Source: Exiguobacterium sp. Leaf196 (GTDB taxonomy: Bacteria; Bacillota; Bacilli; Exiguobacteriales; Exiguobacteriaceae). From it: a DNA stretch of 64,000 bases. The notes under the pieces are model-generated. The model was not told the DNA's origin. It saw nothing but the letters and a program-made list of their open reading frames with translations, and made no database searches. The stretch covers positions 385,908 to 449,907 of the forward strand of contig NZ_LMPV01000001.1 of assembly GCF_001423965.1 (NCBI RefSeq), given 5' to 3'. Below, one piece after another: positions 15,774 through 23,101 of this stretch. A program made the position numbers and the translations under genes. The stretch's first letter is position 1; the number at the start of each line of letters is the position of its first letter.

Positions 15774-15780
15774 GTTTTTG

Positions 15781-15816
15781 ACCGACCTTTCAATCTGCGG
15801 AAAGGTCGGTTTTTTG
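15781..15816 (+). terminator. intrinsic terminator of gapN
   Basis: ACCGACCTTTC pairs with GAAAGGTCGGT (11 bp) and is followed by TTTTT. Confidence 0.9.
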
Positions 15817-15880: not shown

Positions 15881-15910
15881 TTGGCGCTATAGCTTCATTC
15901 TCTCTATAAT
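15881..15910 (+). promoter_or_regulatory. sigma-A promoter of MBL-SDR-Ynj operon
   Basis: TTGGCG (15881-15886), 18 bases, TATAAT (15905-15910), 36 bases before the first start codon. No other promoter or terminator is evident until 22431, so it may drive eight genes. Confidence 0.6.
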
Positions 15911-15946: not shown

Positions 15947-16918
15947 ATGACTGTAGCAGACGAAATCATCCCGATTCCGATTCCCACACCATTTCCTGTA
16001 GGGGACGTGAACTGTTATGTGTTACGAACGGAAGGGGAAAACATCCTCATTGATTGTGGACCCGATACACTCGAGGCGTGGCAAATGATGCAACAGACGC
16101 TTGCGCGACACGATTTGCGGGTTGAGGATTTAGATCGTGTCATCGTGACGCATCACCATGCGGATCATGCTGGGATGGCACATCGATTTTCAGAGAAAGG
16201 CATTCCTGTCTATGGACATGCGCGGTTGCGCCCGTATTTGGAACAGGACGAGACGTTCCTAAACAATGGGGACGTGTTCTTACGTCGACTGGCGACTTCA
16301 TTTGGTGTTCCGTCAGCGATTCAAGAGATGTTACCGAGCTATCAATCTGCCTTAAAATGGCTTGGAAAAGGTCAGCTTGATTTCATATTAAAGGAAGGCG
16401 ACGCAATTACACCTTCTGGGCGATATCGCGTCATCGAACTGCCAGGTCATGCGAGTGACCAAATCGGAATTTTAAGCGACGATGGTATATTGTTCGCGGC
16501 GGATCATCTGCTGGACCGGGTCGAACCGAACCCGTTGCTTGAACAACCGCAACCGGGTGATGACGTGCTCGTGAAACGACCCGTTCTTGCGTATCTTGAC
16601 TCCTTGGAAAAACTACAAGGAGAACAGATCCGAATTGCGTATACTGGTCATGGTGATCCGATTCGCGATGTCGCGGCACTCGTTGAAGAACGATTGATGC
16701 AACGCAAGGCACGCGGCGATCAACTGTTAAAGTATTTTTCAGAAGAGCATACGTTATTTGAATTAGCACAAGTGACGTATGGGAATCGATTGAAAAAATC
16801 ATTCCCACTCGTCATGAGTGAAATGAAGGCACGTCTTGATACGCTCGTCGCACGTGGTGCGATTACGGTTGAGAAACGATCTGGTATCCTCTACTATTCG
16901 AAAATGGAGGAAGTTTAA
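15947..16918 (+). CDS. MBL-fold metallo-hydrolase
   Basis: A 323-residue metallo-beta-lactamase fold hydrolase. The zinc motif is THHHADHAG (H69, H71, D73, H74), with further ligands expected at H in ELPGHASDQ and D in LFAADHLL. The C-terminal 80 residues (from about 240) look like a small winged-helix/LACTB2-type domain. The reaction is unknown; relatives hydrolyse thioesters, phosphodiesters or RNA. It is the first gene of a tight operon, and its stop overlaps the next start by one base (TAATG). The association with the Ynj-like genes suggests a small-molecule or lipid-headgroup hydrolase, but that is inference. Confidence 0.85.
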   Translation: MTVADEIIPIPIPTPFPVGDVNCYVLRTEGENILIDCGPDTLEAWQMMQQTLARHDLRVEDLDRVIVTHHHADHAGMAHRFSEKGIPVYGHARLRPYLEQDETFLNNGDVFLRRLATSFGVPSAIQEMLPSYQSALKWLGKGQLDFILKEGDAITPSGRYRVIELPGHASDQIGILSDDGILFAADHLLDRVEPNPLLEQPQPGDDVLVKRPVLAYLDSLEKLQGEQIRIAYTGHGDPIRDVAALVEERLMQRKARGDQLLKYFSEEHTLFELAQVTYGNRLKKSFPLVMSEMKARLDTLVARGAITVEKRSGILYYSKMEEV

Positions 16919-17676
16919 TGCAACTCATCAACCGGACGATCGTCATCACCGGTGCTTCAAGTGGACTCGGGGAAGCACTGGCGCGCACTCTGCATAAAGA
17001 AGGGGCAAACTTGATTTTAATCGCACGACGCGAGGATCGATTACAAACGTTAGCATCTGAAATCCAGGCAGACTACCTGGTCTACGATTTGGAAGTGGCG
17101 CCCGAAATTCTTGCGAAAACACTCGCAAATCGTTATGGACGGATCGATATTTTGATTAATAACGCAGGTTTCGGGGAATTCAGCTTCCTAGACGATACTT
17201 CGATTGAAACGATCGAGTCGATGCATCGGATCAATGTCTTAACTCCTGTTCGCTTAACGAAAGCGTGCCTTCCGTTACTGAGAGAAGGGGGTATGATCGT
17301 CAATGTCGCGAGTCAAGCAGGAAAGCTGCCGACACCGAAGTCGACGATCTATTGCATGACGAAAGCAGCGATCCTGCAGTTTTCGAACGCCTTACGACTG
17401 GAGTTGCGTCCAAAAGGGATTCACGTCATGACGATTAATCCCGGACCGATCGCAACGGAATTTTTCGTAAGAGCGGACATTAGTCGGAAGTACGAAAAAA
17501 ATGTGGCCGCGATTGTCTTATCGAAAGAACAACTCGCACGGACTGTCGTCCGGGCGATGCGACGCCGAAAGCGAGAGGTCAATGCGCCATGGTGGATGGA
17601 GCTTTCAGCAAAAGGGTACGGCGTTATGCCACAGCTGATTGAATGGTTAGGAAAATCAGGTTTCGACAAAAAGTGA
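16918..17676 (+). CDS. short-chain dehydrogenase/reductase
   Basis: A 252-residue classical SDR. The cofactor motif TGASSGLG (11-18) and NNAG (81-84) are intact, and the catalytic residues are S132, Y145 and K149 (YCMTK). ARR at 36-38 after the second strand suggests NADPH preference. The basic segment RAMRRRKREVNAP and the C-terminal hydrophobic region (AKGYGVMPQLIEWLG) are typical of the DltE/YqjQ-like branch, some members of which act on lipid or ketone substrates. The substrate is unknown. It is coupled to the MBL gene and lies 19 bases before the lipoprotein gene. Confidence 0.85.
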   Translation: MQLINRTIVITGASSGLGEALARTLHKEGANLILIARREDRLQTLASEIQADYLVYDLEVAPEILAKTLANRYGRIDILINNAGFGEFSFLDDTSIETIESMHRINVLTPVRLTKACLPLLREGGMIVNVASQAGKLPTPKSTIYCMTKAAILQFSNALRLELRPKGIHVMTINPGPIATEFFVRADISRKYEKNVAAIVLSKEQLARTVVRAMRRRKREVNAPWWMELSAKGYGVMPQLIEWLGKSGFDKK

Positions 17677-17695
17677 TGACGGAGGAGAACAACGA

Positions 17696-18892
17696 ATGAA
17701 AACAAAAGTAATCAGCTTTCTTGCCTTAGGTACCCTGCTTGCAGGATGTGGGTCACCGGATGCAACACCGGAACCGAAGAATGTCTTAGGAACTTCTTAT
17801 CAGACAATTGAAAAAGAAGCGGAAAAATCAACGGTTCGGATGTACATGTGGGGCGGCGATGACGGCATCAATGCCTACATCGATGAGTACGTAGCACCGC
17901 GTCTGAAGAAGGAGCACAATATTACGTTAGAACGTGTCCCAATCGAGACGGCAGACATTATTCAAAAATTACGTGCTGAGAAAAAGGCAGGTAAGGAAAA
18001 AGGCGTCATCGATGTCGTCTGGATTAATGGCGATAACTTCTTGAATGCTAAAAAAGATGAGTTACTTTATGGGGAAATTACAAAAGTTCTTCCAAACATG
18101 AAATACGTTGATGCTGCCGCCCAAAGTTCAGATAGCGGTACGAAAACAGACGGGCTCGAAGCCGCATGGGGAAAAGTCCAATATACGTTGCACTATGACG
18201 CAGCTGATGTAAAGTCGCCACCAAAGGACTTACAAGCGTTGAAGTCTTGGGTCAAGGAAAATCCAGGACGCTTCACGTATCCAGAAGTGACGGATTTTAC
18301 AGGAAACGCCTTCGTCCGTCACGTCATGTATGGTGTCGAATCGAACGCGACCCTAAAAGACCCAAAAGCAGACTTCAAGAAGACATGGGCTTACCTGAAC
18401 GAAATCAAACCGTACCTCTGGAAAAAGGGGAAGACGTATCCGAAGACGCTTGCGCAACTCGATCAGTTATACGCGAAGGGAGACGTCGACTTCACGATGG
18501 GCTTCAACGAACGACGGGCAGAACAAGAAGTGAAGTCAGGAACGTTTCCGAAACAAACGCGTCCGATTGTTTTGAAGGATGGCTCAATCGCATCGACCCA
18601 TTTCCTTTCCGTACCATTCAACGCACCGAACCCGAGAGGTGCACTCGTTACGATCAATACGCTGTTGTCACCAGAGGCACAATTGAAAAAATATGATGCG
18701 ACTTACTGGGGCGATGGAACGAGTCTCGATTTGTCGACACTTGATCAGGCAGAACAAAAGCAGTTCGCTGATGTACCGGCCGCACCGTCGACACCGAAGC
18801 CGAGTGTCTTTGAAGGGAAAGTCCGGACGGAACTAGATCCATCGGTCTTCGAGATGATCCGTAAGGAATGGCCGTCTCGTGTGGCGCGGTAA
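17696..18892 (+). CDS. ynjB: YnjB-like ABC transporter solute-binding lipoprotein
   Basis: A 398-residue exported lipoprotein: signal peptide with lipobox LLAGC (C18). The mature part starts with an unstructured linker, then the extracellular binding protein fold. The early blocks MYMWGGDDGINAYIDEYVAP and IDVVWINGDNF match my recollection of the E. coli YnjB family (uncharacterised YnjBCD transport system). It would capture the substrate for the two downstream permeases. GGAGGAGAA precedes the ATG. The ligand is unknown; the nearest described relatives by fold are iron, thiamine and putrescine binding proteins. Its end overlaps the next gene by 14 bases. Confidence 0.8.
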   Translation: MKTKVISFLALGTLLAGCGSPDATPEPKNVLGTSYQTIEKEAEKSTVRMYMWGGDDGINAYIDEYVAPRLKKEHNITLERVPIETADIIQKLRAEKKAGKEKGVIDVVWINGDNFLNAKKDELLYGEITKVLPNMKYVDAAAQSSDSGTKTDGLEAAWGKVQYTLHYDAADVKSPPKDLQALKSWVKENPGRFTYPEVTDFTGNAFVRHVMYGVESNATLKDPKADFKKTWAYLNEIKPYLWKKGKTYPKTLAQLDQLYAKGDVDFTMGFNERRAEQEVKSGTFPKQTRPIVLKDGSIASTHFLSVPFNAPNPRGALVTINTLLSPEAQLKKYDATYWGDGTSLDLSTLDQAEQKQFADVPAAPSTPKPSVFEGKVRTELDPSVFEMIRKEWPSRVAR

Positions 18893-19637
18893 CGTATATC
18901 CTGCTGCAATTCTGATGGCAGGGATGGTCTTATACGGGCTGTGGGTCAGTGTTTCAATGACGTCACCCGCCGACTATCATGAGCTACTGACGGATGACGT
19001 CTTTTTAGAGAGTCTAACCGCCAGTAGTTACGTTGCCATCGTGAGTACGGGCATTGCCTTGATCATCGGTGTGATGCTCGCACGAATCTTGAGCAGAACA
19101 CGGCTAGCGGTGTTGCTCGCGATTCCGTTATTCATTCCTCATCTAGGAGCGGCGTATCTCGCAATCCTCTACCTCAGTGATGTGCCGATCATCGGACCGC
19201 ATGAAGGGAACTACATCAGTGTCATCTTGACGTATCTATATAAAGAAATTCCGTTCGTCTTTTTTTATCTCTTACCGGTTGTACGACGTCTCGATCCACG
19301 TTACCAAGAACTTGGTATGATGCTCGATTTATCGCCAGTGCGCCGATTCTGGCATGCACGGGGTGTGTTCCTGCTCGTTCCCATGCTTGAAGCCGGCTTT
19401 ATCTTACTTGCCTTTATTTTATTCGCGTATGAAATTCCGGCATTGCTCGGCGTGACCTATCCGAAATTACTTGGCGTCTATGCCTTTGACTTATACACAC
19501 AAGGTGATTTATCGGAACAACCGCTCGCTTTTGCGATGAGTGTCGTCTTGACGGGTGGACTTTTCCTCTTACTAGTGCTCATGACGGGTTTAACCCGCCC
19601 GTTGGCAACGAAGATCAGTAGGGGGCGAAGTGAATGA
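18879..19637 (+). CDS. YnjC-like ABC permease, first half
   Basis: A 252-residue permease with about six helices. The coupling loop is seen in DPRYQELGMMLDLSPVRRFW. In E. coli, YnjC is a single protein of about 510 residues with two permease modules; here two separate genes of 252 and 248 residues take its place, and this one matches the N-terminal module by order. The start is GTG 18879-18881 inside the end of the lipoprotein gene, with AAGGA 11 bases upstream; no better codon exists. It overlaps the next gene by 4 bases (ATGA). Confidence 0.75.
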   Translation: MWRGNVYPAAILMAGMVLYGLWVSVSMTSPADYHELLTDDVFLESLTASSYVAIVSTGIALIIGVMLARILSRTRLAVLLAIPLFIPHLGAAYLAILYLSDVPIIGPHEGNYISVILTYLYKEIPFVFFYLLPVVRRLDPRYQELGMMLDLSPVRRFWHARGVFLLVPMLEAGFILLAFILFAYEIPALLGVTYPKLLGVYAFDLYTQGDLSEQPLAFAMSVVLTGGLFLLLVLMTGLTRPLATKISRGRSE

Positions 19638-20380
19638 AAAAAACTAGCGTCATCGTATGCGTTGTTCTTCTTTTCAACGTTCCATTGATCGGATTAATTC
19701 CGGGAGAATGGAATTGGAATCCGCGTCTTGAAGCAACGCTTGGTACGACCATTGCGATGGTCTGTGCCGTTATATTGTTAAATCATCTTTTCGGATACAT
19801 GGCAGGAAAAGCGATCGCTTTTCAAACCGGGATACGCATTCGTATAGCAGAGTTCTTGATTAGTTTGCCGCTATTCGTTCCCGTCTTATTGTTGTCGTTC
19901 GGTCTCTATTTGACATGGATCCGGCTCGGTCTGGCAGATCGTTTTTTCGGTGTACTGCTCGTGTTGCTTCTGCCGACATTGCCATATACAGTCCGTTTGT
20001 ACACGAACGGATTTCAGACGCTCGGTGAGCGGATGCTCGAACAGATGGTCTTGCTCGAAGGAAATCGATTCAAACGTTGGTTTTATTTGACAGGACCGAT
20101 GTTACGATCGACATTACAGTCCGTGACGTTGCTCGTCACCGTGATCACGATCAGTCAATATGCTCTTGTTGCGTTGATTGGAGGCGGAATCGTCCGCATG
20201 ATCGCACTGGAAGTGTTCCCGGCGTATTCTGGTAATTCGCAGGAGGCAGCTCGTCTGGCAACACTTTGGTTGATTGGATTACCTGTTCTTTTTTATGTAT
20301 TACAAGCCGTTATTTTTTCTAGCTGGATACGAATCGTACGGAGGCGTTTAAATGGAAGTCACGATACAACAAGTCAATAA
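19634..20380 (+). CDS. YnjC-like ABC permease, second half
   Basis: A 248-residue permease with about six helices. The coupling loop TLGERMLEQMVLLEGNRFKR lies near residues 134-153. It pairs with the preceding permease to form the pore. The gene overlaps the ATPase gene by 29 bases, so the C-terminal tail (RRRLNGSHDTTSQ) is encoded over the ATPase ribosome site; this points to tight translational coupling. The substrate is unknown. Confidence 0.75.
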   Translation: MKKTSVIVCVVLLFNVPLIGLIPGEWNWNPRLEATLGTTIAMVCAVILLNHLFGYMAGKAIAFQTGIRIRIAEFLISLPLFVPVLLLSFGLYLTWIRLGLADRFFGVLLVLLLPTLPYTVRLYTNGFQTLGERMLEQMVLLEGNRFKRWFYLTGPMLRSTLQSVTLLVTVITISQYALVALIGGGIVRMIALEVFPAYSGNSQEAARLATLWLIGLPVLFYVLQAVIFSSWIRIVRRRLNGSHDTTSQ

Positions 20381-21239
20381 ACGATTTGGAAGCAAACAAG
20401 TGTTGTCTGATATCGATGTAAGCATCGCGTCTGGACAATGCGTGGCTTTAGTCGGACCGAGTGGTAGCGGGAAAACGACGCTTCTCCGCCTGATTGCGGG
20501 TCTCGAACGTGTGACGAGTGGAGTGATTCGATTTGGGGAACGAGACGTCACGACACTCTCTCCGAATCAACGAGGTGTGACGATGATGTTTCAACGCTCT
20601 TTATTGTTTCCGCATTTGAACGTTGAACAAAACATTCGCCTCGGTGCGAAACAGTTAACACCGATCGAACTTGATTCTTGGTTATATCGCGTCGGACTCG
20701 AGGGGAGAGGACGAAGTGCCATCCACGAACTTTCAGGGGGTGAACAGCAACGTGCGAGTCTAGCTCGTGCGCTGGCGAGTCAACCGGACTTCTTGTTGCT
20801 CGATGAACCGTTCTCGAGTCTAGATGTACCGAGACGACGAGAACTTCGGACATTGATCCGAAAGTTGACCGAGGAACAAGGCGTCACGACACTGCTTGTC
20901 ACGCATGACCGGGAAGAGGCAATGGCGATGGCGGATGTCATTTATGTTTTGGAACAAGGACGGATCGTGGATCGCGGCACACCGATCACGCTCAGTCAGA
21001 CAAGTCCGTTTTTCGGTGAAGGCATCTACATCGAAGCGACTTGGTATCCGTTGACGTCAGTTAACTTGGTCTCAAGACCGACGAAGGAAACGGATGAGCG
21101 TGTTACGATTACGAAAGAACTCATTCAATATGGCGTACGGTTCTACGAAGTGGAACGGCCATCAGGCGAACGGCTCGTACTTTCTTCAGACGAGACGATT
21201 CATTCGATAGAAGGGTATATCGTTAGAAAGGAGGGGTGA
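20352..21239 (+). CDS. ynjD: YnjD-like ABC transporter ATP-binding protein
   Basis: A 295-residue ABC ATPase. Walker A is GPSGSGKTT (35-43), the signature is LSGGEQQR (127-134), Walker B is FLLLDEP (147-153), and the switch His is H185 (LLVTHD). The core fits the sulfate/iron/thiamine/putrescine importer group. E. coli YnjD is only about 217 residues; here some 80 extra residues follow the core, with a beta-rich sequence that could be a regulatory domain (RVTITKELIQYGVRFYEVE). It powers the two permeases. It is followed after one base by the phosphatidyltransferase gene. Confidence 0.85.
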   Translation: MEVTIQQVNKRFGSKQVLSDIDVSIASGQCVALVGPSGSGKTTLLRLIAGLERVTSGVIRFGERDVTTLSPNQRGVTMMFQRSLLFPHLNVEQNIRLGAKQLTPIELDSWLYRVGLEGRGRSAIHELSGGEQQRASLARALASQPDFLLLDEPFSSLDVPRRRELRTLIRKLTEEQGVTTLLVTHDREEAMAMADVIYVLEQGRIVDRGTPITLSQTSPFFGEGIYIEATWYPLTSVNLVSRPTKETDERVTITKELIQYGVRFYEVERPSGERLVLSSDETIHSIEGYIVRKEG

Positions 21240-21240
21240 C

Positions 21241-21822
21241 ATGTTAGATACGCGTGCGCGTAAAATCGTTCAACCCCTGTTTGATCAAGGGGCGACCTTA
21301 TTTAAGAAAATTGGATTATCAGCGACGCAGGTGACGATCATTTCGGGAATCATCGGCGGTGCGACGGGCTTTTTCGTCTATAACGACATGATGGGAACGG
21401 CAATTGTCCTATTGTGGATCTCGGGTATGCTCGACGTCATTGATGGCACGATGGCAAGAAAAGAGAAGACAACACCAATTGGTACGATCCTTGATCTTGT
21501 TCTCGACCGAATTGTCGAACTGTCAGTGTTAATTGGTCTCGCACTCCGGTTTCCGGAAACGCAGGTTGTGATTCTGTTACTTGTCGCATCATTCGTCATT
21601 GGGATGACGATGTTCCTTGCGATCGGAGCAGTTAGTGAGAACTACGGTTACAAGTCGTTTCAATATCAACCAGGACTCATCGAACGAACGGAAGGATTCC
21701 TATTCTTGACGGCGATGATTCTGTTTCCAAGTGCTATCATCTGGATCGCAAGTGTTTTCTTGATCGCTGAACTCTATACGGTTGGAGAACGATTCCATCA
21801 AGCATCGAAGGTGTTACGATGA
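21241..21822 (+). CDS. ynjF: CDP-alcohol phosphatidyltransferase, YnjF-like
   Basis: A 193-residue integral membrane enzyme of the CDP-alcohol phosphatidyltransferase family. The complete signature is present: D65, D68-G69, A72-R73, G81, D85, D89. Such enzymes move a phospholipid or other phosphoalcohol from a CDP-activated donor to an acceptor alcohol in the membrane. It is distinct from the housekeeping pgsA at 49108. E. coli ynjF sits beside ynjBCD in the same order, which suggests that transporter and enzyme act on the same compound. Acceptor and product are unknown. It overlaps the Nudix gene by 4 bases. Confidence 0.85.
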   Translation: MLDTRARKIVQPLFDQGATLFKKIGLSATQVTIISGIIGGATGFFVYNDMMGTAIVLLWISGMLDVIDGTMARKEKTTPIGTILDLVLDRIVELSVLIGLALRFPETQVVILLLVASFVIGMTMFLAIGAVSENYGYKSFQYQPGLIERTEGFLFLTAMILFPSAIIWIASVFLIAELYTVGERFHQASKVLR

Positions 21823-22409
21823 GTGAACAAGAGATGATCATGACGGTGGACCGAGCTGGGAATCCGCTCGGACCGCGTCCGCGATCAGAAGTCCACGCAA
21901 AAGGTCTATGGCATGAAACGTTTCATTGTTTCGTCTATGATCCAACGCGGGACGTCGTGTTGCTCCAGCAACGTTCTGAACAAAAGAAGGACTTTCCGGG
22001 AATGCTCGATATCACGGCAGCCGGTCATCTGCTTGCAAATGAGACGGTTGAAGATGGTGTCCGGGAACTCGAAGAAGAGATTGGTTTAGCTTATACCTTT
22101 GATCAACTAATACCTCTTGGAGTTCAGGAGGAGGAGTTTCGGGATGCGACACTTTGGGATTGTGAACGATGCCATGTGTTTCTCGCACAAAGTGATCAAG
22201 CGTTAGAATCGTATAGGCTCCAGGAAACCGAAGTGAAACGATTAATCGCTTTTTCGATTGAGCAGTTGGATCGCATCGCTGACGTGACGATTGAGCGTAT
22301 TCAGGATAAAACAGGAGAATGGTTCGATCGTCATCAATTCGTTCCGCATCCTTCTTCTTACTGGAAACATGTCCAACAGGGAATCGAAAGATTACGTAAC
22401 CTAAGCTAA
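21819..22409 (+). CDS. Nudix hydrolase
   Basis: A 196-residue Nudix protein of the isopentenyl-diphosphate-isomerase-like (YfcD-type) branch. The Nudix box runs from G69 to L90 (GHLLANETVEDGVRELEEEI), with REL-EEE-IGL intact. The gap between the first Glu and the RE pair is six residues, one shorter than the textbook box. It would hydrolyse a nucleoside diphosphate linked to another group; given the preceding enzyme, a CDP-alcohol or a by-product of its use is a possible substrate (inference). In E. coli a Nudix gene (nudG) also follows ynjF. Last gene of the operon. Confidence 0.85.
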   Translation: MSEQEMIMTVDRAGNPLGPRPRSEVHAKGLWHETFHCFVYDPTRDVVLLQQRSEQKKDFPGMLDITAAGHLLANETVEDGVRELEEEIGLAYTFDQLIPLGVQEEEFRDATLWDCERCHVFLAQSDQALESYRLQETEVKRLIAFSIEQLDRIADVTIERIQDKTGEWFDRHQFVPHPSSYWKHVQQGIERLRNLS

Positions 22410-22430
22410 TCTTGAGAATTATGACACAGA

Positions 22431-22470
22431 ACGACCTACGATCGAATGTGATGTCGACGTAGGTCGTTTT
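22431..22470 (+). terminator. intrinsic terminator of Ynj-like operon
   Basis: ACGACCTACG-A-TCG pairs with CGA-CGTAGGTCGT and is followed by TTTTC. Confidence 0.85.
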
Positions 22471-22539: not shown

Positions 22540-22564
22540 AAAAGAAGGAAAGAAGGTGCAGCCA

Positions 22565-23101
22565 GTGGCATTACGATTTGCACTACTCGGGCTGCTGACC
22601 CAAGGGGAAGCGACCGGTTATGATTTGAGCGCGACTTTTAAAAAACAGATGATCCACTTCTGGACCGCACATCATACACAAATATACCGAGAGTTGTTAA
22701 AAATGGAAGAGGCAGAACTTGTGACGAGCGTTCATATCGTTCAAGAAGATCTGCCGGATAAGAAAGTCTATTCGATCACGGATAAAGGGCGGACGGAGCT
22801 CGTCGAATGGTTACGGACACCGAATGAATTCAAACCGAAGATGAAGGATGAGAACTTGATGCGGGTCTCGCTCTTGCATCTTCTCCCACTAGAGGAAGCT
22901 GTCGCTTATCTAGAAGAATCGAAGCGACACCATCAATTTGCCGTCGAGATGATGCAAAGCTGGCGTCACGATCATCTCGAGAATGGTGCGACACTAGGTG
23001 AGACCTTGACGAGTGAATACGGCTTGCGTATGATGTTGAATTACTTGGACTGGTGTGATTGGGCGATCGCGGAAATCAGAAAAAACGGAGCGAACGTCTA
23101 A
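22565..23101 (+). CDS. PadR-family transcriptional regulator
   Basis: A 178-residue regulator with the PadR winged-helix domain at the N-terminus (LRFALLGLLTQGEATGYDLS; YSITDKGRTEL closing the wing) and the Vir-type helical C-terminal domain (EEAVAYLEESKRHH, LNYLDWCDWAIAEI) that dimerises. The GTG at 22565 is chosen because AGAAGG lies 8 bases before it and family members begin right before LR-ALLGLL; an in-frame GTG at 22556 would add three residues. Targets and ligand are unknown. It could regulate the upstream operon or the gene that follows. Confidence 0.85.
   Translation: MALRFALLGLLTQGEATGYDLSATFKKQMIHFWTAHHTQIYRELLKMEEAELVTSVHIVQEDLPDKKVYSITDKGRTELVEWLRTPNEFKPKMKDENLMRVSLLHLLPLEEAVAYLEESKRHHQFAVEMMQSWRHDHLENGATLGETLTSEYGLRMMLNYLDWCDWAIAEIRKNGANV

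What the first reader, a model, noticed from the sequence alone, without database searches (positions are those of the whole stretch)
15947..22409. Eight-gene operon around a YnjBCD-type transporter, a CDP-alcohol phosphatidyltransferase and a Nudix hydrolase
The last six genes (binding lipoprotein, two permeases, ATPase, CDP-alcohol phosphatidyltransferase, Nudix) follow the order of E. coli ynjB-ynjC-ynjD-(ynjE)-ynjF-nudG, across a phylum boundary. Such conservation suggests one pathway: import of an alcohol or phospho-alcohol, its attachment through a CDP-linked intermediate in the membrane, and clean-up of the nucleotide product. Here an MBL hydrolase and an SDR are added in front and the sulfurtransferase gene is absent. 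The substrate of YnjBCD is not known to me. This is the best candidate in the window for an undescribed system.
Basis: partly seen in the sequence, partly recalled or inferred. Interest (0 to 1): 0.75.

Follow-up and report, generated by a model that had tools for sequence, protein, structure and literature searches.

The report
Nutrient importer paired with lipid-headgroup enzyme
This Exiguobacterium operon pairs an uncharacterised nutrient importer with an uncharacterised membrane-lipid enzyme, and the same two genes travel together in distantly related bacteria including E. coli, which suggests that some bacteria import a small alcohol and build it into a lipid that has not been identified.

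Summary
The eight genes are real, at the stated coordinates, between two terminators. The binding protein is YnjB-type (418 bits, cut-off 203). The claimed match to E. coli gene order fails in detail: in K-12 ynjF is on the opposite strand, ynjC is one fused permease, and nudG is not homologous to this Nudix gene beyond the superfamily. A distinct YnjF-type CDP-alcohol phosphatidyltransferase (CAP), separated by a score gap from other CAP enzymes, lies near YnjB in 86 of 122 loci outside Exiguobacterium. In whole genomes it accompanies YnjB in 21 of 30 Bacillota (14 families) and 49 of 51 Pseudomonadota (15 unlinked). A control importer, ThiB, shows that shared ancestry explains part of the Pseudomonadota figure. 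Seventeen CAP-less loci carry a kinase, TIGR0428x glycosyltransferases or a nucleoside hydrolase, never with CAP; 19 have neither. TVP38 scramblase-like genes accompany both forms. This Nudix gene was found only in Exiguobacterium. Best reading: import of a hydroxylated compound and its transfer onto a phosphatidyl group. The enzyme is not an inositol-phosphate synthase: a substrate-binding arginine is absent in 118 of 118. Ligand and lipid are unknown.

The parts
15780..15811 (+). terminator of the upstream aldehyde dehydrogenase gene; marks the front of the operon
   Evidence: 12-pair hairpin and T tail; fold -19.3 kcal/mol, z -4.51
15881..15910 (+). promoter-like site TTGGCG-18-TATAAT
   Evidence: consensus scan only
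15947..16918 (+). MBL-fold hydrolase, 323 aa; Exiguobacterium-specific member
   Evidence: Pfam PF00753 80.9 bits; in 21 of 21 distinct Exiguobacterium loci, in no operon chain outside the genus
16918..17676 (+). short-chain dehydrogenase, 252 aa; Exiguobacterium-specific member
   Evidence: Pfam PF00106 157.7 bits; 21 of 21
17696..18892 (+). YnjB-type solute-binding lipoprotein, 398 aa
   Evidence: NF008633 418.2 bits, cut-off 203; 35% to E. coli YnjB; AlphaFold2 model pLDDT 90.4; lipobox LAGC read in the sequence
18879..19637 (+). permease A (GTG start), matches the N-terminal half of YnjC weakly
   Evidence: syntenic with PermA of other loci
19634..20380 (+). permease B, matches the C-terminal half of YnjC weakly
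20352..21239 (+). ABC ATPase (YnjD-type), 295 aa
   Evidence: PF00005 115.2 bits; 32% to YnjD
21241..21822 (+). YnjF-type CDP-alcohol phosphatidyltransferase (CAP), 193 aa; D65 D68 G69 A72 R73 G81 D85 D89 intact
   Evidence: PF01066; 28% to YnjF; signature in 118 of 118 homologues; nearest solved fold PIPS
21819..22409 (+). Nudix protein, 196 aa, IDI/YfcD-like, not NudG; Exiguobacterium-specific
   Evidence: PF00293 46.8 bits; best NCBIfam hit 66.9 bits, cut-off 127; 0 of 122 loci outside the genus, 17 of 21 within
22429..22470 (+). hairpin with T-rich tail, probable terminator of the operon
   Evidence: -24.1 kcal/mol, z -4.58; sequence

Best explanation
YnjBCD and the YnjF-type enzyme form an import-and-lipidation pair. 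The lipoprotein captures a small hydroxylated compound X, the permeases and ATPase import it, and the CAP enzyme in the same membrane condenses X, or phospho-X made by another enzyme, with CDP-diacylglycerol, giving a phosphatidyl-X lipid and CMP. A TVP38 (COG0398) protein, near YnjB in 77 of 122 loci but unlinked in Exiguobacterium, would move the lipid between leaflets. In a second form of the locus the same importer is paired with a phosphotransferase, two TIGR0428x transferases and/or a nucleoside hydrolase. Shown: gene content, linkage, whole-genome co-occurrence, conserved catalytic residues. Inferred: direction of flow, CDP-diacylglycerol as donor, that X is an alcohol. Unknown: what X is. 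The MBL, SDR and Nudix genes are a local extension.
For: CAP within about 9 kb of YnjB in 86 of 122 distinct non-Exiguobacterium loci with full flanks: 12 of 20 in the Bacillota draw, 32 of 48 in the Pseudomonadota draw, 41 of 53 named relatives, plus E. coli K-12. CAP family is discrete: Bacillota 23 of 398 genomes at 150 bits or more, next hit 79; Pseudomonadota 60 of 398 above 140, next listed 79. Both genes: 21 of 30 YnjB+ Bacillota genomes, 20 of them within 10 kb; 14 of 15 CAP+ Bacillota families also have YnjB. Pseudomonadota: 49 of 51 YnjB+ against 11 of 347 others; 15 of the 49 unlinked. Intact signature and invariant R184 in 118 of 118. TVP38 in 63 of 86 CAP loci; COG0398 proteins are argued to be phospholipid scramblases (PMC10127716, passages). 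Alternative partners also act on hydroxyl or ribosyl groups.
Against: No ligand, lipid or activity is known. ThiB, an unrelated importer, is also enriched in YnjB+ Pseudomonadota (26 of 40 against 1 of 40), so shared ancestry inflates the co-occurrence; CAP is in 38 and 0 of the same genomes. 11 of 60 CAP+ Pseudomonadota genomes lack YnjB, and 9 of 30 YnjB+ Bacillota lack CAP. 19 of 122 loci have neither CAP nor the alternative genes nearby. Rhodanese, TusA/YeeE, MerA-like and SelD-type partners point to sulfur or redox chemistry that this explanation does not use. The fold of the binding protein does not point to an alcohol.
Confidence: 0.45

Rival explanations
1. Headgroup salvage: YnjBCD imports an already phosphorylated alcohol or phosphonate-like compound, and CAP uses it directly in a PIPS-like reaction.
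For: Foldseek's best PDB matches of the binding protein include the Salmonella STM0429 protein and hexose-phosphate binders such as AfuA; the best NCBIfam match of the ATPase is PhnT2 (233.6 bits, cut-off 457.7). CAP is nearest to PIPS, which uses a phosphorylated acceptor.
Against: All those matches are below cut-offs or shared with polyamine, sugar, ferric and thiamine binders. Of the two arginines that bind the phosphate in PIPS one is absent in 118 of 118 CAP proteins. The kinase in alternative loci suggests a non-phosphorylated import.
Confidence: 0.2
2. A sulfur, selenium or redox system: YnjBCD imports a sulfur- or selenium-containing compound handled by rhodanese, TusA/YeeE, MerA-like and SelD-type proteins; CAP and TVP38 adjust the membrane.
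For: Rhodanese 23, MerA-like 34, SelD-type oxidoreductase 31, TusA/YeeE 7 of 122 loci; ynjE is named as directly activated by FNR in E. coli and ydjXYZ-ynjABCD is listed in the same regulon table (PMC3688515, passages).
Against: These partners are optional and lineage-bound, absent from the Exiguobacterium operon except the SelD-type gene in 4 of 21; CAP is the commonest partner and stays in the genome when unlinked.
Confidence: 0.17
3. YnjBCD is an ordinary polyamine or thiamine importer and CAP is a lineage hitch-hiker.
For: A review table lists YnjB as the E. coli homologue of a polyamine binding protein (PMC9397018, one passage); the YnjB profile hits PotD-type chains weakly (E 0.0005 to 0.001).
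Against: Weak partial matches only; linkage to CAP in 14 Bacillota families and 15 Pseudomonadota genomes that keep CAP unlinked argue against hitch-hiking.
Confidence: 0.1
4. An arsenosugar-related system, as the NCBI names of TIGR04282 and TIGR04283 suggest.
For: TIGR04282 and TIGR04283 proteins over cut-off, with a kinase, in alternative loci.
Against: The arsenosugar enzyme ArsS (TIGR04167) is over its cut-off in 0 of 35 YnjB+ genomes.
Confidence: 0.03

Closest known systems
Escherichia coli K-12 ydjXYZ-ynjABCD-ynjE / ynjF / nudG region
   Same: Homologous YnjB, YnjD and YnjF; both uncharacterised; TVP38 genes ydjX and ydjZ sit in front of it
   Different: ynjC fused, ynjF on the opposite strand, ynjE present, NudG of another Nudix subfamily, no MBL or SDR
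Phosphatidylinositol-phosphate synthase (PIPS) of mycobacteria and Renibacterium
   Same: Nearest solved structures of the CAP enzyme by profile (8.6e-19) and fold (TM 0.72); same catalytic signature
   Different: R155 equivalent absent in 118 of 118, K135 equivalent lysine in 0 of 118; 58.5 bits against a PIPS cut-off of 170
Uptake of a free headgroup alcohol followed by CDP-diacylglycerol-dependent transfer, as in bacterial phosphatidylcholine synthase with imported choline (recalled, not from a call)
   Same: How it would work: imported alcohol plus CDP-diacylglycerol
   Different: Other transporter types and another CAP subfamily; not compared here

Membership tests
YnjBCD ABC importer | YnjB-type binding protein over the curated cut-off of NF008633 | tested here: met
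   418.2 bits, cut-off 203
YnjBCD ABC importer | YnjC-type permease and YnjD-type ATPase beside it | tested here: met
   YnjD 32%, E 8.5e-30; permeases split into two genes with weak matches to the two halves of YnjC
E. coli ynjB-ynjC-ynjD-ynjF-nudG gene order | same order and strand, including a NudG homologue | tested here: not met
   ynjF on the opposite strand; NudG E 0.028
YnjF family of CAP enzymes | membership in the discrete family that contains E. coli YnjF | tested here: met
   28%, E 1.8e-16; in profile A2, built from window, E. coli and relatives, window 265.9 bits with a gap from about 150 down to 79 bits (the window and E. coli proteins are in the profile by construction)
CDP-alcohol phosphatidyltransferase superfamily | DxxDGxxAR...GxxxDxxxD signature | tested here: met
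   all eight residues in 118 of 118 sequences
Phosphatidylinositol-phosphate synthase (PIPS) | inositol-phosphate-binding arginines R155 and R195 (MtPIPS numbering, PMC4634129 passages) | tested here: not met
   R195 equivalent R184 in 118 of 118; R155 equivalent R or K in 0 of 118
NudG (CTP/5-hydroxy-CTP diphosphatase) | sequence relationship to E. coli NudG | tested here: not met
   BLAST E 0.028 over 53 residues, no phmmer hit
Polyamine importer (PotABCD) | polyamine binding by the solute-binding protein | not testable with these tools
   only weak partial profile matches; shared fold shows no ligand
Arsenosugar biosynthesis cluster | ArsS (TIGR04167) in the same genome | tested here: not met
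   over cut-off in 0 of 35 YnjB+ genomes, window genome included
Import-coupled phospholipid headgroup synthesis | YnjB ligand is the acceptor of the CAP enzyme | not testable with these tools
   needs binding and enzyme assays

The most novel reading that the evidence does not exclude
YnjBCD-YnjF is a widespread, unrecognised pathway that makes a phospholipid with an imported, still unknown headgroup, present even in E. coli K-12, where its genes are in the FNR regulon; a second, kinase/glycosyltransferase/nucleosidase form of the same importer system serves the same compound in other bacteria.
Probability: 0.3. Interest if true: 0.85.

Novelty: new variant of a known kind. Interest (0 to 1): 0.6.

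Why it matters
YnjB, YnjC, YnjD and YnjF are orphan genes of E. coli. If they form one pathway, two unknowns become testable together in a standard laboratory strain: find the YnjB ligand and look for it in a lipid. A phospholipid with an imported headgroup would add to what is known of bacterial membranes and give the TVP38/COG0398 scramblase-like proteins a candidate cargo. In the searches made here no paper in the held library contains the word ynjF, and the ynjB/COG4134-4136 hits that I opened are lists, tables and regulon data, not a study of the transporter's function; several hits were seen only as listings.

Tried and rejected
Arsenosugar link: suggested by the names of TIGR04282/TIGR04283; rejected as a general explanation because ArsS is over cut-off in 0 of 35 genomes. 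Clean replacement of CAP by kinase/glycosyltransferase genes: it holds at locus level (0 of 122 have both) and in the Bacillota genomes (the six with such loci lack CAP), but not in Pseudomonadota, where 3 of the 4 genomes with such loci have CAP elsewhere. Neighbours of unlinked or YnjB-less CAP genes: 27 Pseudomonadota regions (15 unlinked, one second copy in G753, 11 CAP-only) and 3 Bacillota regions; no constant partner in the Pseudomonadota ones, only occasional TVP38, MerA-like, SelD-type or TIGR04283 genes. Ligand from fold: phosphonate-type, sugar-phosphate, sugar, polyamine, ferric and thiamine binders all appear among the top matches. Co-divergence of YnjB and CAP distances (r 0.815 in 72 loci; YnjB-ATPase 0.76, YnjB-TVP38 0.615) is not controlled for descent and is not used as proof. 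Fisher values for whole genomes (7.6e-26 and 2.2e-49) ignore relatedness; the ThiB control shows why they must not be taken literally (YnjB- genomes there are the low-numbered ones, not a random pick). Loci dropped before the count of 122: of 173, 8 duplicates by YnjB sequence, 21 distinct Exiguobacterium loci counted apart, and 22 with under 4.5 kb upstream or 6.5 kb downstream. The 80 named loci are the best matches to the query alignment out of at least 583 and so favour near relatives. Rfam and tRNA scans of the window: no hits. Paper searches that gave nothing useful: (one paper, passages only).
Full report
What is there. The window holds eight co-directional genes between 15947 and 22409, framed by a terminator at 15780-15811 and a second hairpin at about 22429-22470. 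In order: MBL-fold hydrolase, short-chain dehydrogenase, YnjB-type lipoprotein, two permeases, ABC ATPase, CDP-alcohol phosphatidyltransferase (CAP), Nudix protein. YnjB is in 19 of 19 genomes of the genus. The genus is Exiguobacterium: one same-genus contig (G005, 3034136 bases) has the length of the E. sibiricum 255-15 chromosome, and the nearest named relatives are Exiguobacterium. In 21 distinct Exiguobacterium loci (25 before duplicates were removed) MBL, SDR and CAP are in all 21, the Nudix gene in 17, and a SelD-N-terminal-type oxidoreductase in the other 4 (gene order).

Comparison with E. coli. In K-12 the genes run ydjX-ydjY-ydjZ-ynjA-ynjB-ynjC-ynjD-ynjE, with ynjF on the opposite strand and nudG beyond it. 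YnjB, YnjD and YnjF are homologues of the window proteins; the permeases match the single fused YnjC only weakly; NudG does not match. So the order is not conserved, but the pairing of YnjBCD with a YnjF-type enzyme is.

Locus survey. 173 loci: E. coli K-12, 18 Exiguobacterium regions, 24 Bacillota and 50 Pseudomonadota regions from evenly drawn genomes with YnjB over cut-off, and 80 named relatives (which favours near relatives). Genes were assigned with profiles built here. After removing 8 duplicates, 21 Exiguobacterium loci and 22 with short flanks, 122 remain. Within about 9 kb of YnjB: CAP in 86, TVP38 in 77, MerA-like flavoprotein in 34, SelD-type oxidoreductase in 31, rhodanese in 23, APH-type kinase in 12, nucleoside hydrolase in 10, TIGR04283 and TIGR04282 in 9 each, NudG type in 8, the window's Nudix type in 0. 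By source CAP is in 12 of 20 (Bacillota draw), 32 of 48 (Pseudomonadota draw), 41 of 53 (named), and E. coli. None of the 122 has CAP together with APH or TIGR0428x genes, nor with the nucleoside hydrolase. Of the 36 CAP-less loci 17 have one of those alternative genes (8 of 8 in the Bacillota draw) and 19 have none (12 of 16 in the Pseudomonadota draw).

Whole genomes. The CAP family separates from other CAP enzymes: in Bacillota 23 of 398 genomes score 150 bits or more and the next hit is 79; in Pseudomonadota 60 of 398 score over 140 and the next listed is 79. In Bacillota 21 of 30 YnjB+ genomes have it, 20 of them within 10 kb and the last at contig ends; 14 of the 15 CAP+ families also have YnjB, and the fifteenth holds a broken YnjB beside its CAP. 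In Pseudomonadota 49 of 51 YnjB+ genomes have CAP, 34 linked and 15 unlinked, against 11 of 347 genomes without YnjB over cut-off. Control: ThiB, an unrelated importer protein, matches in 26 of 40 YnjB+ and 1 of 40 YnjB- genomes; CAP is in 38 and 0 of the same 80; of the 14 YnjB+ genomes without ThiB, 12 have CAP. Shared ancestry therefore explains part of the Pseudomonadota association. Physical linkage in many Bacillota families is the firmer evidence.

The enzyme. The CDP-OH-P signature is intact in 118 of 118 aligned homologues, the window included. The nearest solved proteins are PIPS of mycobacteria and Renibacterium, by sequence profile and by fold (AlphaFold2 pLDDT 89.1; TM 0.72). In MtPIPS, R155 and R195 bind the phosphate of inositol phosphate and K135 may touch the ring (PMC4634129, passages). 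By the alignment the R195 equivalent is R184, kept in 118 of 118; the R155 equivalent is G152, arginine or lysine in 0 of 118; the K135 equivalent is S132, lysine in 0 of 118. E148 and E151 are invariant. The enzyme looks competent but is not a PIPS; its acceptor is probably another alcohol.

The importer. The binding-protein model (pLDDT 90.4) resembles phosphonate-type, sugar-phosphate, polyamine, thiamine, ferric and sugar binders about equally, so the ligand cannot be read from the fold.

Partners. COG0398/TVP38 proteins are argued to be phospholipid scramblases, and their commonest fusion is with a pyridine nucleotide-disulfide oxidoreductase (PMC10127716, passages); that fusion occurs at the YnjBCD locus L207. 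The window genome has an unlinked TVP38 gene (182 bits on the profile of linked ones) and an unlinked MerA-like gene (48% identity), but no close SelD-type gene. In E. coli ynjE is named as directly activated by FNR and ydjXYZ-ynjABCD stands in the same regulon table (PMC3688515, passages); ynjA and ynjB rise modestly (1.6- and 1.4-fold) on BaeR overexpression (PMC2731931, passages).

Mechanism and limits. The most economical reading is import of a hydroxylated compound and its transfer onto a phosphatidyl group by the YnjF-type enzyme, with TVP38 moving the lipid. The alternative loci put a kinase, transferases or a nucleoside hydrolase beside the same importer, again chemistry on hydroxyl or ribosyl groups; but in Pseudomonadota 3 of 4 genomes with such loci also keep CAP elsewhere, so the two forms are not strict substitutes. 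Sulfur and redox partners remain unexplained. The role of the MBL, SDR and Nudix genes in Exiguobacterium is not known.

Literature. No paper in the held library contains the word ynjF. ynjB occurs with 'transporter' in six papers, of which I saw passages of five: a regulon study, a pangenome calling the system uncharacterised (PMC9207381), a polyamine review table (PMC9397018), a ciprofloxacin-tolerance screen (PMC13131330) and a knock-out correlation table (PMC9405208); the sixth (PMC8921622) only as a listing. COG4134-4136 occur in two papers, one seen only as a listing. Subscription journals are mostly not held, so this is no proof that nothing is in print.

Noticed in passing
L089, L090, L095, L135 (3' end of the operon): In four Exiguobacterium genomes a SelD-N-terminal-type FAD oxidoreductase (TIGR03169-like, below cut-off) stands where the window has the Nudix gene.
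   Followed up: partly
21819-22409: The Nudix box is one residue short between E and REL (GHLLAxExxxxxxREL) compared with the usual spacing as I recall it; the short form is in all 21 Nudix proteins printed.
   Followed up: no
L250 (Bacillota genome G078): YnjB is broken into several pieces with stop codons right beside an apparently good CAP gene.
   Followed up: no
L207:5900-7900: TVP38 domain fused to a MerA-like flavoprotein, between a TonB-dependent receptor and a DUF547 protein, beside YnjBCD and CAP; a fatty-acid-hydroxylase-type gene follows CAP.
   Followed up: partly
L181, L182, L194, L195: A hydantoinase/oxoprolinase-A-type gene lies directly before CAP and YnjB in four Pseudomonadota loci, two of them with identical YnjB.
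   Followed up: no
L072, L074, L079, L081, L164, L171, L172, L176, L198: Genes matching TIGR04282 and TIGR04283, named arsenosugar glycosyltransferases, sit at YnjBCD loci; ArsS was not over cut-off in the five of these genomes that were tested (G065, G400, G061, G195, G419), so the name may mislead.
   Followed up: partly
L069, L075, L081, L164: Some clostridial-type loci carry a split YeeE/YedE sulfur transporter around a TusA gene, a GltD-like flavoprotein and rhodanese genes, suggesting a sulfur-handling variant.
   Followed up: no
22556-23101: A PadR-type regulator gene follows the operon in the Exiguobacterium loci (one search shows it in 18 of 18); a possible regulator, not tested.
   Followed up: no
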